Virus record (IMG/VR): IMGVR_UViG_3300008952_000281
Location: 1 to 24,954 of that record
Source: a virus
Length of the DNA: 24,954 nucleotides
Strand: one strand, 5' to 3'
Shown here: piece by piece, positions 1,970 through 12,071 of the stretch
How positions within the stretch are numbered: the stretch's first letter is position 1
How the letters are laid out: every line of letters begins with the position of its first letter
Translations under genes and position numbers: made by a program
Notes under the pieces: model-generated
What the model was told of the DNA's origin: nothing
The model's input: the letters and a program-made list of their open reading frames with translations, nothing else
Databases searched by the model: none

Positions 1970-2106
1970 ATCAAGTAGAAGCGTTAGAAAGTTTTTTAGC
2001 ATGGTTAAAATCTTGTCCATTTATTTATACTATCTCTTCCATGCAAGGAAGTTTTGTGCATGTTAAATTTTTTCTAAAACCTACAGGTAGTAAGGGGGAA
2101 GAATGA
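1966..2106 (+). CDS. Very small hypothetical protein (46 aa)
   Basis: A 46-codon frame, MNQVEALESFLAWLKS... ending GSKGEE and TGA. It exactly bridges the genes on either side with four-base ATGA overlaps at 1966-1969 and 2103-2106. The upstream AAAGGAGG at about 1956-1963 fits its ATG. It is short, but the tight double overlap, the Shine-Dalgarno and the lack of a competing frame make it a credible gene. It has a hydrophobic centre (SCPFIYTISS). Function unknown. Confidence 0.6.
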   Translation: MNQVEALESFLAWLKSCPFIYTISSMQGSFVHVKFFLKPTGSKGEE

Positions 2107-3011
2107 CTTCAATTCCTTTTATTGGAAAACCTATGTTAGCTGGGAAAGCTGACGATGATCAGATAGAAAGGCTATTGAATAAAGGAGCAATGATAGGATC
2201 TCCTAAGTTAGATGGTATTCGTTGTCTAATTCAAAATGGAATAGCCTTATCTAGATCTTTAAAAGAAATACGTAATAAATATGTTCAAACTATATTAGGT
2301 GTTCCAGAACTTAGTGGATTAGATGGTGAATTAATTGTAGGAGCTCCTACAGATACTGATGTTTATAGAAATACAACTAGCAATATCATGAGAGAAAAAG
2401 GTGAGCCTAAGTTTACTTTTTGGGTATTTGATCACTTTTTAAAAAATGATGTATACATAAATCGTAAAAAAGAACTTAATTTATTTAATAAACATATGCC
2501 AAAAATTATAAAAATTCTTGGTAGTCAAGTTATTAATAATATAGAAGAGCTTAGAGAATACGAAATGGATTGTCTAAGCATTGGCTATGAGGGAGTAATA
2601 CTCAGGGATCCCAATGCTATGTATAAGCATGGCAGATCTACAGCTAAAGAAGGTGGCTTAATAAAAGTAAAACGATTTAGCGATTCCGAAGCAAGAATAC
2701 TTGCTATGGAAGAGCAAATGAAAAATAACAATGAGAAAAAAGTTAACGAATTAGGACGAGGTCAACGCTCATCGCATAAAGCAAATAAGAGCCCTAAAGG
2801 AACTTTAGGAGCATTGGTAGTAGAAGACGTATATAGCGGAGTTCAATTTAATATTGGAACAGGATTTACTGATAGTGTTAGAGATCAATTATGGAAACAT
2901 AAAGAAGATTTAATAGGTACTACTGTTAAATATAAATACTTTGATATTGGTGTCAAAGAATTACCAAGACATCCAGTATATTTAGGAATTAGAATCCCGG
3001 AGGATATGTAA
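2103..3011 (+). CDS. ATP-dependent DNA ligase
   Basis: A 302-aa nucleotidyltransferase-type ligase that seals nicks in replicating or recombining phage DNA through an enzyme-AMP intermediate. Motif I is KLDGIR at 35-40, with K35 the AMP-accepting lysine. Motif III is LDGEL at 73-77, motif IIIa FWVFD at 106-110, motif IV EGVILR at 163-168, and motif V IKVK at 187-190. The remaining roughly 70 residues fit an OB-fold domain. The size is that of a compact phage ligase such as the T7 type, with no extra domains. GGGGGAAG upstream supports ATG 2103. It overlaps the previous gene by four bases and the downstream tas gene by one (TAATG), which suggests the ligase and tas are co-translated. Confidence 0.95.
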   Translation: MTSIPFIGKPMLAGKADDDQIERLLNKGAMIGSPKLDGIRCLIQNGIALSRSLKEIRNKYVQTILGVPELSGLDGELIVGAPTDTDVYRNTTSNIMREKGEPKFTFWVFDHFLKNDVYINRKKELNLFNKHMPKIIKILGSQVINNIEELREYEMDCLSIGYEGVILRDPNAMYKHGRSTAKEGGLIKVKRFSDSEARILAMEEQMKNNNEKKVNELGRGQRSSHKANKSPKGTLGALVVEDVYSGVQFNIGTGFTDSVRDQLWKHKEDLIGTTVKYKYFDIGVKELPRHPVYLGIRIPEDM

Positions 3012-3871
3012 TGTCAAATATTAGAACATTAGTGAGAGGAATATATAATATTCAAAAACTAAGAGTACAAATGGGGAACAGACTTGTAGGTAATTTTAAG
3101 GTTAAATTAGGACAAGCTCCAAGTGAACCAGAAGGTACATTAGATAAGCAAGATGAAGCATTTCTTGCTCGATTAAGAAAAGACTTTTTAAAAATTACAG
3201 ATGGAGTACTTACTCTACCTACACGTAAGAAATTTAAAAGTGAAGGAGTAATTGATAATTACACGGAACTTTGTCTTGTGTCTTCTTACGTTAATTTAGC
3301 TGAAGAAGAACAAAATCAATTTAAATATTTAGGTAAAGTATTAAGTGATTTTCCAATATGGACTAAATTTCTAAAAAGCGTAAAAGGAGTTGGGCCAGCT
3401 ATGGCTGGAGTCCTTCTTAGTGAAATTGATATTAGTAAAGCTAAATACCCATCTAGTTTATTTAAACTTGCTGGAATAGATGTAGCATCAGATGGAAAAG
3501 GACGATCTAGAAGAAGAGAACATCAAGTCGAGGTTGAATATAAAGATAAAGATGGTAAAACAGCTACTAAAAAAGGGATTACTTTTAATCCTTTTTTAAA
3601 AACAAAGTTATGTGGAGTATTAGGTGGAGCTTTTCTTAAAGCAGGAGAAAAAAATAATCCATATAGAGAAGCATATTATAATTATAAAACTAGACTAGAA
3701 AATCATCCAGATCATTCTCTTAAATCAAAAGGACATCGTCATAATATGGCGAATCGTTATATAATTAAGTTATTCTTAATAGATCTTCATATGAAATGGA
3801 GAGAACTAGAAGGACTACCAGTAAGTGTACCGTATCATGAAGCTAAATTAGGATTAAAACATGCAAGTTAA
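3011..3871 (+). CDS. tasA: TIGR-associated protein, nuclease-less (TasA-like, Nop/IS110-like core)
   Basis: A 286-aa protein directly upstream of the 36-bp array, proposed as the RNA-binding effector of a TIGR-Tas system. Residues 1-115 are mostly helical, as in the coiled-coil part of Nop proteins. Residues 122-170 hold KSVKGVGPAMAG (123-134), a YPS segment (146-148), LAGID (153-157) and a Gly/Arg-rich loop (162-169). This series matches the helix-hairpin-helix region of IS110-type transposases (Transposase_20), to which Tas proteins are related. The basic C-terminal part (188-270) continues that fold, including GHRHNMANRYIIKLF. No RuvC/DEDD acidic motif and no HNH motif is visible, so it fits TasA rather than TasR or TasH. 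In the family, Tas binds array-derived 36-nt guide RNAs and uses paired spacers to recognise DNA. GGAGG precedes the ATG, and the stop abuts the array. Assignment rests on motif reading plus array context; no profile search was run. Confidence 0.85.
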   Translation: MSNIRTLVRGIYNIQKLRVQMGNRLVGNFKVKLGQAPSEPEGTLDKQDEAFLARLRKDFLKITDGVLTLPTRKKFKSEGVIDNYTELCLVSSYVNLAEEEQNQFKYLGKVLSDFPIWTKFLKSVKGVGPAMAGVLLSEIDISKAKYPSSLFKLAGIDVASDGKGRSRRREHQVEVEYKDKDGKTATKKGITFNPFLKTKLCGVLGGAFLKAGEKNNPYREAYYNYKTRLENHPDHSLKSKGHRHNMANRYIIKLFLIDLHMKWRELEGLPVSVPYHEAKLGLKHAS

Positions 3872-4914
3872 TCATTATTACCAAGTAAACCAAGTAAACC
3901 GAGTGAGTCATCCACTTGTAGTAAACCAGAGAAAAAAAGCGAGTCATCCCCATTCAGAAAACCAAGATAAAAAAACGAGTCACGATCTTTAAGAAAACTA
4001 AAATTATTCAGCGAGTCACGATATTAGAGTAATCCATTAGATCAAAACGAGTCACAACTTTAGAGAAACCCAACTTGAATCAGCGAGTCACAACAATTAA
4101 GAAAACTAGTTTAGATTAGCGAGTCAGAGAGTACGAAGTAAACCAGTACCGTACAGCGAGTCAATATAGAAAAGAAAGCCAAGATACAGAAGCAAGTCAA
4201 ATGGCAAAAGGAATCCAATCACTGGTAGCGAGTCAACCCTCTGTAGAAACCCACTGCGCCAAAGCGAGTCAAATATTTGTAGTAAACTAAAATTACAAAA
4301 CGAGTCACATTTTCCTAGTAGCCCATATAAGGAAAACGAGTCATTTGTTGGAAGAAACCCAAGAGTGGCAAACGAGTCATCGAACAAAAGAAACCTAAAA
4401 TTCATTAACGAGTCATAACTGATTAGTAACCCAGTGCTTTTAAACGAGCCAACAGTCAACAGAAAACTAATATTTTAGAGCGAGCCAGCGGGCAGTAGTA
4501 AACCAAATTTTAAAAGCGAGTCATTGGCCCCAAGAAACCCACTATGTTGTAGCGAGTCATATTAAGAAAAGAAAATCATAAAATGTAAACGAGTCAAAAA
4601 AACAAAGAAAACCATTATCCGTGAACGAGTCATCAAAAGACAGAAAACCAAAATTAATCAACGAGTCATGGGGAGCTAGAAATCCAACGTCCCCAAGCGA
4701 GTCAAACGATGATAGAAAACCAAATGTAACAAGCGAGTCAATTCTACCAAGTAAACCAGGAAGGTTTAACGAGTCAGGGCCTTTTAGAAACCCATTAAAT
4801 TAGAACGAGCCAAATATTTGTAGTAGCCCATTATAGGTAAGCGAGTCATTCGGACATAGAAAACCACAAATACAAAACGAGCCACAAGATATTATAAAAC
4901 CCACAAACTAGAAG
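3872..4914 (+). repeat. TIGR array (tandem interspaced guide RNA array), about 29 units of 36 bp
   Basis: Noncoding array with unit: repeat A ARCGAGTCA (9), spacer A (9), repeat B AGWAAMCCA (9), spacer B (9). Repeat A starts at 3902, 3938, 3974, 4010, 4046, 4082, 4118, 4155, 4191, 4227, 4263, 4299, 4335, 4371, 4407, 4443, 4479, 4515, 4551, 4588, 4624, 4660, 4696, 4732, 4768, 4804, 4840 and 4876. The period is 36 throughout except at 4118 and 4551, where a spacer has 10 nt; the last unit also has a 10-nt spacer A. An extra leading repeat B lies at 3884, and a degenerate leading repeat A (…TTAATCA) overlaps the tas stop. Variants include CGAGCCA in units 16, 17, 26 and 28. Spacers differ almost everywhere. 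Known TIGR arrays are processed to 36-nt tigRNAs with two short spacers. It is co-directional with tas and has no promoter of its own that I can see. Confidence 0.93.
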
Positions 4915-4938
4915 CGTATATAAGAAAGGAATAATAAA

Positions 4939-6069
4939 ATGTCAACAGACCTAGAAAGCAAACTACTTAAAGCTAAAGTAGAGCTAATGACTAGGTCAGC
5001 TTTTATATCTACTATAGCGTTAAGCTTAACTCATATTATTACAGATAAATGTAATACAGCTGATGTTTGTGGCACTACTGTTAGATATAATCCAGAATTT
5101 ATTACAAAATTAACTGTACCTCAATTTGCTGGATTAATAGCTCATGAGTCCTGGCATGTAGCATTTCAACATATGGCACGTAAAGGAACTAAAGATCATA
5201 TTATTTGGAACTGCGCAGGAGATTATGTAATTAATCATATGCTAAATAAAGCAGGATTTGAAATTCCTACTGGAGGATTACTAGATAAAAAATATGATGA
5301 CGAATGGTCTACTGATCAAGTTTACAATGATCTAATGAAAGAAAATAAAGATTTTGACACCGCAAAATTGATGCTAGACCTTCGTGAAGAAAAAGGCCAA
5401 ACCAAAGAAGAAACTCTTTCAAGAGATTCTGCTGTTACTAGTGTAGTTATTAGAGCTAAAACTGCAGCAGAAATAGCTGGTAATAAAGCAAAAGGAGAAA
5501 TTCCTAATGAAATATCTAGAATAATTGAAGAATTAATTAACCCTAAGATACCATGGCAAGTTGTATTACATAAATTTCTCGACCAACGAGTACGCGAAGA
5601 GTACTCGTGGGCAAGAAGAAATCGTAGATATGCATCAAATACTTATATGCCAAGTCTACATAGTCATGGTTTAGGGCACCTAACATTTGCTATTGATACT
5701 AGTGGAAGTATAGATGACACTCAGTTACAAGAAATGCTTAGTGAAATTAAAGGAATACAGCAAATATTTAATCCAGAAAAAATGACAATTATTGACTGCG
5801 ATTCCCAAATTCACGGAATACATTCAGTTGATCAAAATACTGATATTATGTCATTAAAATTTCATGGAGGGGGAGGCACATCTTTTATGCCTGTTTTAGA
5901 ATACATAGAAGAAAATCCAACTCAAGCTCTTATATATTTTACTGATTTATATGGAGAAGATGATTTAGAACCAGTAGATTATCCTATTTTATGGATATGT
6001 AACTCAGACCATAATCCGGCATCTATAGGAGAAACTGTTTATGTCGATCACTACAGTACTGCTGTATAA
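4939..6069 (+). CDS. VWA-domain protein with HExxH metallopeptidase-like N-terminus (DUF2201-like)
   Basis: A 376-aa two-domain protein. Residues about 60-105 carry AHESWHVAFQH, with an HExxH motif at 69-73, then NCAGDYVIN, as in the putative metallopeptidase domain of DUF2201-type proteins. The C-terminal half is a von Willebrand A domain: the MIDAS DTSGS is at 253-257, GGGGTSF at 310-316 (T314), and an acidic FTDLYGE at 335-340. VWA proteins of this type pair with MoxR ATPases, and the gene at 541-1584 is the obvious partner. Whether the HExxH is catalytic is unknown. GAAAGGA at about 4924-4930 supports ATG 4939. Its 3' end overlaps the polymerase gene by 29 bases. Confidence 0.88.
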   Translation: MSTDLESKLLKAKVELMTRSAFISTIALSLTHIITDKCNTADVCGTTVRYNPEFITKLTVPQFAGLIAHESWHVAFQHMARKGTKDHIIWNCAGDYVINHMLNKAGFEIPTGGLLDKKYDDEWSTDQVYNDLMKENKDFDTAKLMLDLREEKGQTKEETLSRDSAVTSVVIRAKTAAEIAGNKAKGEIPNEISRIIEELINPKIPWQVVLHKFLDQRVREEYSWARRNRRYASNTYMPSLHSHGLGHLTFAIDTSGSIDDTQLQEMLSEIKGIQQIFNPEKMTIIDCDSQIHGIHSVDQNTDIMSLKFHGGGGTSFMPVLEYIEENPTQALIYFTDLYGEDDLEPVDYPILWICNSDHNPASIGETVYVDHYSTAV

Positions 6070-11996: not shown

Positions 11997-12071
11997 GCCC
12001 TTGTAGCTCAATTGGTAGAGCGACTGTTAATAGAACAGTGGTAGGTGGTTCAAATCCGCCCAAGGGCACCA
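11997..12071 (+). tRNA. tRNA, anticodon uncertain (odd anticodon loop), CCA encoded
   Basis: A complete cloverleaf can be drawn. The acceptor stem is GCCCTTG/CAAGGGC, the D-arm GCTC-AATTGGTA-GAGC, the anticodon stem ACTGT/ACAGT, a four-base variable loop, and the T-arm GGTGG-TTCAAAT-CCGCC. A discriminator A and encoded CCA follow. The anticodon loop reads TAATAGA, which puts A rather than the near-universal T at position 33 and gives AUA at 34-36. The loop-closing T and A could also pair, shrinking the loop to five. The decoding identity therefore cannot be stated. It lies between two small genes of the same strand. Confidence 0.85.

What the first reader, a model, noticed from the sequence alone, without database searches (positions are those of the whole stretch)
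3902..4903. About 56 different 9-nt spacers: a readable target list
Pairing spacer A and spacer B of each unit gives about 18 nt of specificity per guide. Examples: 4480s unit, GCGGGCAGT with AATTTTAAA; 4227 unit, ACCCTCTGT with CTGCGCCAA. Sets of two half-sites found together at fixed spacing in one genome would reveal the target. Single 9-mers are uninformative by chance.
Basis: inference. Interest (0 to 1): 0.8.

Follow-up and report, generated by a model that had tools for sequence, protein, structure and literature searches.

The report
Phage TIGR guide array, targets unfound
A marine N4-like phage fragment carries a TIGR-TasA system, a known kind of RNA-guided DNA-binding system with two short guides per RNA; its 9-base guides can be read, but no natural target could be found, and comparing about 170 related arrays shows that the two guides of a unit are linked at one base and are sometimes reshuffled.

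Summary
The array is real: 28 units of 36-37 nt at 3902-4912, plus a degenerate 29th at 3866 that begins in the stop codon of the upstream gene. That gene (3011-3871) is a nuclease-less Nop-domain protein, so this is a TIGR-TasA system (Faure et al. 2025). In such systems spacers A and B pair with opposite, abutting DNA strands, so each unit predicts a target reading 5'-A + revcomp(B)-3'.

The "readable target list" did not pay off: no excess over shuffled pairs in 1.4 Mb of this phage and its relatives (2.5 Mb with all TIGR loci), and IMG/VR scans for three units gave about 7 perfect sites where about 7 are expected.

Three things not reported in the discovery paper: (1) The last bases of spacers A and B are Watson-Crick complementary too often: 178 of 1010 units vs 124 expected (z 7.5); held-out arrays 58 of 189 vs 42 (0/5000 shuffles). 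G-T combinations are depleted, suggesting that some pairs share a central base pair (17-bp target). (2) Spacers are re-paired within arrays (51 half-shared unit pairs vs 0.7 expected), so some A/B pairs are chimeric. (3) The module is an insertion absent from relatives, with fast whole-unit turnover.

The parts
3011..3871 (+). tasA: 286-aa solo Nop-domain protein (TIGR-associated protein without nuclease domain)
   Evidence: profile of 52 homologues matches TasR 9mty (E 1.9e-48) and TasH 21kl (E 4.2e-41) only from their Nop part on; AlphaFold model, pLDDT 85.5, best fold matches TasH and TasR complexes, E 6e-9 to 2e-5
3866..4912 (+). [quoted passage not shown]
   Evidence: architecture as defined in PMC12045711
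3866..3901 (+). degenerate first unit; its edge repeat AGTTAATCA contains the last codon and stop codon of tasA
   Evidence: sequence; same arrangement in L003 (1671, AGTTAGTCA), L006 (GAATAGCCA) and L007 (GCGTAGCCA)
4227..4262 (+). unit ACCCTCTGT / CTGCGCCAA; predicted target ACCCTCTGT+TTGGCGCAG (18 bp) or ACCCTCTGTTGGCGCAG if the central base pair is shared
   Evidence: conserved in L003 and L013; scanned in IMG/VR
4335..4370 (+). unit TTTGTTGGA / AGAGTGGCA; predicted target TTTGTTGGATGCCACTCT, present exactly in treble-clef (DUF4379) genes of large phages
4660..4695 (+). unit TGGGGAGCT / ACGTCCCCA; no exact predicted target in IMG/VR
4804..4839 (+). unit with spacer A identical to that of unit 4263 but another spacer B: likely half-unit recombinant
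4876..4912 (+). terminal unit with decayed loop repeat, followed by truncated edge AGCG; identical in L003 and L013
2103..3011 (+). ATP-dependent DNA ligase gene, left border of the inserted module
   Evidence: Pfam; directly abuts DUF2201 in module-free relatives L016 and L024
4939..6069 (+). DUF2201 metallopeptidase/VWA gene, right border of the module
   Evidence: Pfam; synteny

Best explanation
The array is the guide store of a TIGR-TasA system on an N4-like phage. Shown here: the array anatomy, the nuclease-less Nop-domain protein, the module's insertion between ligase and DUF2201 genes, its turnover by whole units, and the linkage of the last bases of the two spacers. Inferred from the TasR/TasH work: the array is transcribed, cut into ~36-nt tigRNAs bound by a TasA dimer, and each tigRNA directs TasA to a DNA site whose two strands pair with spacers A and B. 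Inferred here: because TasA has no nuclease, it probably acts by binding and bending DNA of other mobile elements (blocking transcription or replication), with rapid array turnover driven by changing competitors; in a fraction of units the two half-sites share the central base pair.
For: Edge/loop repeats, 9-nt spacers and 36-nt period match the published definition. Profile hits to TasR and TasH; fold hits. The only Pfam match is Transposase_20, and the aligned region starts after the nuclease domains of TasR/TasH, so it is a solo Nop protein. Geometry from PMC12045711. Closely related arrays share 11-12 of 28 units while tasA is 94-100% identical. Empty site in relatives (L016 ligase ends 6881, DUF2201 starts 6884) and TasA 94% identical next to a MoxR only 73% identical in L071, which indicates mobility. 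A9-B9 complementarity: discovery z 7.5, held-out z 4.5, genome set 46 vs 39.
Against: No natural target found, so the role (competitor control, self-regulation, host control) is unproven. No intrinsic terminator and no clear promoter seen near the array, so expression is assumed. DNA targeting is inferred from TasR/TasH; for TasA the paper shows tigRNA binding (PMC12045711).
Confidence: 0.85

Rival explanations
1. The linkage of the last bases of spacers A and B (A9-B9) reflects a base pair inside the tigRNA, across the pseudo-two-fold axis of the complex, and not a base pair shared in the target DNA.
For: Only position pair 9-9 is affected among 81, and these bases meet at the centre of the complex. 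Most units carry purine-purine there, which cannot share a base pair in the target.
Against: G-T and T-G combinations, tolerated in RNA pairing, are depleted (T-G 17 vs 30 and G-T 18 vs 22; G-T 4 vs 9.9).
Confidence: 0.4
2. The spacers target the phage's own genome or close relatives (gene regulation or exclusion of sibling phages).
For: TIGR-free relatives with the same gene order exist and would be natural competitors.
Against: No exact match and no excess over shuffled pairs in 1.4 Mb of this phage and its N4-like relatives, with any gap from -1 to +2.
Confidence: 0.15
3. Unit 4335 targets a conserved codon stretch (KEWHPTK) of treble-clef zinc-finger genes carried by large phages.
For: The exact 18-mer TTTGTTGGATGCCACTCT occurs in four unrelated contexts, all at the same motif of DUF4379 proteins with a C-terminal domain that looks nuclease-like (the nuclease reading is mine, not a Pfam hit). 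The unit is unchanged in all three sibling arrays.
Against: The motif is very common, so one chance hit brings many contexts. Counting each motif family once, perfect sites over three scanned units are at the chance level (about 7 observed, about 7 expected, my count). No other unit of 1596 encodes this motif. Whether the hit contigs share the phage's habitat is unknown.
Confidence: 0.1
4. The array is an ordinary CRISPR array or a decayed tandem repeat.
For: Interspaced repeats with variable spacers.
Against: Two alternating 9-nt repeats, 9-nt spacers and a Nop-domain partner; no cas operon among the window proteins scanned. Spacers are near-identical in shared units between siblings (4 of 216 bases differ), so the array is maintained and not decaying.
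Confidence: 0.01

Closest known systems
TIGR-TasA systems (e.g. FpTIGR of Flavonifractor plautii; Faure et al. 2025, PMC12045711)
   Same: dual-repeat array with 9-nt spacers and 36-nt units next to a solo Nop-domain protein; phage-borne
   Different: AG/CCA-type box motifs; the array starts inside the tasA stop codon; A9-B9 linkage and chimeric spacer pairs documented here; inserted in an N4-like phage replication cluster
TIGR-TasR (PDB 9mty) and TIGR-TasH (PDB 21kl, 9w04)
   Same: homologous Nop domain, same fold class, same array logic
   Different: no RuvC or HNH nuclease domain here
IS110-family bridge-RNA transposases (IS621, PDB 8wt6)
   Same: distant homology of the RNA-binding domain (E 1.9e-4); Pfam and PHROGs label tasA a transposase
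   Different: no DEDD transposase domain matched, no bridge RNA; a repeat array instead
Box C/D snoRNP Nop5/Nop56
   Same: two guides per RNA and box-like motifs, by analogy in PMC12045711
   Different: only weak fold matches here (E 0.2 and worse); no fibrillarin or L7Ae; DNA rather than RNA target inferred

Membership tests
TIGR-Tas (dual-repeat type) | alternating edge and loop repeats of 8-12 nt separated by 9-nt spacers, ~36-nt unit | tested here: met
   9/9/9/9 nt, 36-nt step, a few one-base deviations
TIGR-Tas (dual-repeat type) | adjacent gene for a Nop-domain Tas protein | tested here: met
   directly upstream, stop codon inside the first edge repeat
TIGR-Tas (dual-repeat type) | box C (CCA) and box D motifs shared by edge and loop repeats | tested here: met
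   both repeats begin A[GA] and end in CCA/TCA; box D reads AG where TasR has UG, so the motif class differs
TIGR-Tas (dual-repeat type) | truncated edge repeats at both ends, rho-independent terminator after the array | tested here: inconclusive
   truncated edges present; no terminator-like site found in 3700-5100
TasA subtype | no HNH or RuvC nuclease domain | tested here: met
   286 aa; no nuclease match in Pfam; profile aligns from residue 64 (TasH) or 109 (TasR) on
TIGR-Tas (dual-repeat type) | array processed to 36-nt RNAs bound by Tas | not testable with these tools
   needs RNA-seq of the complex
TIGR-Tas (dual-repeat type) | spacers A and B target opposite abutting DNA strands | tested here: inconclusive
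   no target found; the A9-B9 linkage is indirect support that A9 and B9 meet
CRISPR-Cas | single long repeats (25-36 nt) with one spacer class, cas genes | tested here: not met
IS110 transposase | DEDD catalytic domain and bridge RNA at element end | tested here: not met
   only the C-terminal Transposase_20 stretch matches (residues 120-171)

The most novel reading that the evidence does not exclude
In TasA-type TIGR systems the two spacers of a unit are read against a site in which they share the central base pair (17-bp footprint) in a sizeable fraction of units, while arrays diversify by recombination at loop repeats that re-pairs spacers. If so, the published view of independent, non-overlapping spacers is incomplete, and natural targets should be searched as A + revcomp(B) with a one-base overlap.
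Probability: 0.4. Interest if true: 0.7.

Novelty: new member of a known kind. Interest (0 to 1): 0.55.

Why it matters
Natural targets of TIGR systems are unknown, and the discovery paper calls the origin of their spacers an enigma. The A9-B9 linkage gives a concrete, testable geometry for target searches. The re-paired spacers and whole-unit turnover show how arrays change without any acquisition genes, and warn that some A/B pairs never described one site. The lineage, with sibling arrays and module-free relatives, is a natural test bed.

Tried and rejected
Targets in own contig and N4-like relatives: no exact match at any gap; 1-2 mismatch hits at shuffled level. All-vs-all, 1105 units against 2.5 Mb: no exact hits; one-mismatch hits with one-base overlap 11 rows (9 sites) vs 4.0 shuffled, but real pairs are 1.4 times more often overlap-compatible and the set is dominated by relatives, so not claimed. 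IMG/VR scans for units 4227, 4660, 4335 allowing overlap -1 to gap +2: 68, 15 and 48 stretches; perfect sites about as expected. Cluster of phage hits for unit 4227 (centre C, not T) and a cluster for 4335 (centre TAT): imperfect, treated as chance. Recurrent predicted targets across independent arrays: 12 shared 12-mers vs 12.2 shuffled. CRISPR and IS110 membership rejected on anatomy.

Full report
What is there. The window is a 24,954-base virus record. Its genes are those of an N4-like phage: virion RNA polymerase (PHROG 2206, E 1.4e-152), primase, exonuclease, SSB and a family A DNA polymerase. That it is marine is my inference from the sample names of its relatives, not a tool result. Between a DNA ligase gene (2103-3011) and a DUF2201 metallopeptidase/VWA gene (4939-6069) lies a two-part module: a 286-aa protein (3011-3871) and an array of 36/37-nt units (3866-4912). 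A degenerate 29th unit begins at 3866 inside the stop codon of the upstream gene.

What it is. The protein has only a marginal Pfam match, to the IS110 C-terminal domain. A profile of 52 homologues from array-bearing loci matches TasR (9mty, E 1.9e-48) and TasH (21kl, E 4.2e-41), in both only from the Nop part on. The AlphaFold model (pLDDT 85.5) has TasH and TasR complexes as its best fold matches. With the array anatomy this is a TIGR-TasA system as defined by Faure et al. 2025 (PMC12045711).

How the list should be read. In TIGR-Tas, spacer A pairs with one strand and spacer B with the other, abutting, with 1-2 bp gaps tolerated and 8-nt 3' overhangs when a nuclease is present. From the stated cut rule I derive that one strand of a target reads 5'-A + revcomp(B)-3'. 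The paper reports no natural targets and no obvious A/B covariation.

Target search. In the phage, its relatives and other TIGR-bearing phages (1.4 Mb) there is no exact site; hits with 1-2 mismatches are at the level of shuffled pairs. All 1105 units against 2.5 Mb: no exact site. IMG/VR was scanned for three units that siblings conserve, leaving the two central positions open and allowing an overlap of one to a gap of two. Counted by hand as distinct contexts, about 7 sites have the correct centre and about 7 are expected from base odds. The best lead is unit 4335, whose exact 18-mer lies in the KEWHPTK codons of DUF4379 treble-clef genes in four contexts; the motif is so common that this is not evidence by itself. 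So the target list is not read.

Linkage of the two spacers. A pattern scan returned over 100 array-bearing viral stretches. In 1057 distinct 9/9 units, position pair A9-B9 is complementary in 183 units against 128 expected from within-locus shuffles (z 7.3); no other of the 81 position pairs exceeds z 3. After removal of near-duplicates: 178 of 1010 against 123.8, z 7.5. In held-out loci from a second scan: 58 of 189 against 42.0, z 4.5, 0 of 5000 shuffles. In bacterial and archaeal genomes: 46 against 39, about p 0.04. The excess is A-T, T-A and C-G; T-T is nearly absent and G-T combinations are depleted. It holds without the window family (158 vs 116). Because A9 and B9 meet at the target centre, the simplest reading is that some units address 17-bp sites with a shared central base pair; an RNA-internal contact is the rival. 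Most units have purines at both positions and cannot share a base pair, so this is a rule for a fraction of units.

Array evolution. Sibling arrays L003 and L013 share 12 and 11 of the window's 28 units as whole units, with 4 of 216 and 3 of 198 spacer bases changed; one unit (4479) is out of order in L013. Within 172 arrays, 51 unit pairs share only spacer A or only spacer B against 0.7 expected for identical spacers by column shuffling. Loci L323 and L341 show consecutive units A1B1, A2B1, A2B2, the product expected from unequal crossover at loop repeats. The window has one such half-shared pair (4263 and 4804). Some A/B pairs are therefore probably chimeric.

Mobility. In relatives L016 and L024 the ligase gene ends two bases before DUF2201 with no module; L071 carries a 94% identical TasA beside a MoxR only 73% identical to the window's. 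The module is an accessory insertion that appears to move between N4-like phages.

Verdict. Observation confirmed; identity as a TIGR-TasA guide array well supported; the target-list promise untested in the right habitat and negative in what could be searched. The spacer linkage and chimeric pairs are the new results.

Noticed in passing
window 2103-6069; L016 6881-6884; L071: TasA plus array is an insertion between ligase and DUF2201 genes; relatives have the empty site, and a near-identical TasA sits in a more distant N4-like phage, which suggests horizontal transfer.
   Followed up: yes
L323, L341, L192 arrays: Consecutive or nearby units share one spacer but not the other (A1B1, A2B1, A2B2), a sign of crossover at loop repeats.
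   Followed up: yes
arrays in L005, L006, L102, L107, L153: In many TasA arrays the last base of both spacers is nearly always a purine, as if it belonged to box D, leaving 8 free bases.
   Followed up: partly
window 3866-3874; L003 1671; L006 10901; L007 11027: The stop codon of tasA lies inside the first edge repeat in several lineages.
   Followed up: partly
L148, L164, L118, L326, L346, L348 arrays: Duplicated units often differ by a few bases in one spacer only, in several cases at its 5' end, as if one half-guide were being adapted.
   Followed up: no
L029 8862-12236: The DNA polymerase gene of an N4-like relative is split by about 1 kb of inserted DNA (intron, intein or homing element).
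   Followed up: no
window 11997-12068: A tRNA gene (Rfam RF00005, 57 bits) within the phage replication cluster.
   Followed up: no
Genome-contig loci L276-L315: TIGR arrays of the same repeat class occur in named bacterial and archaeal genomes, including records such as Acidobacteriaceae KBS 96 (L312), useful for target searches with a known host.
   Followed up: partly
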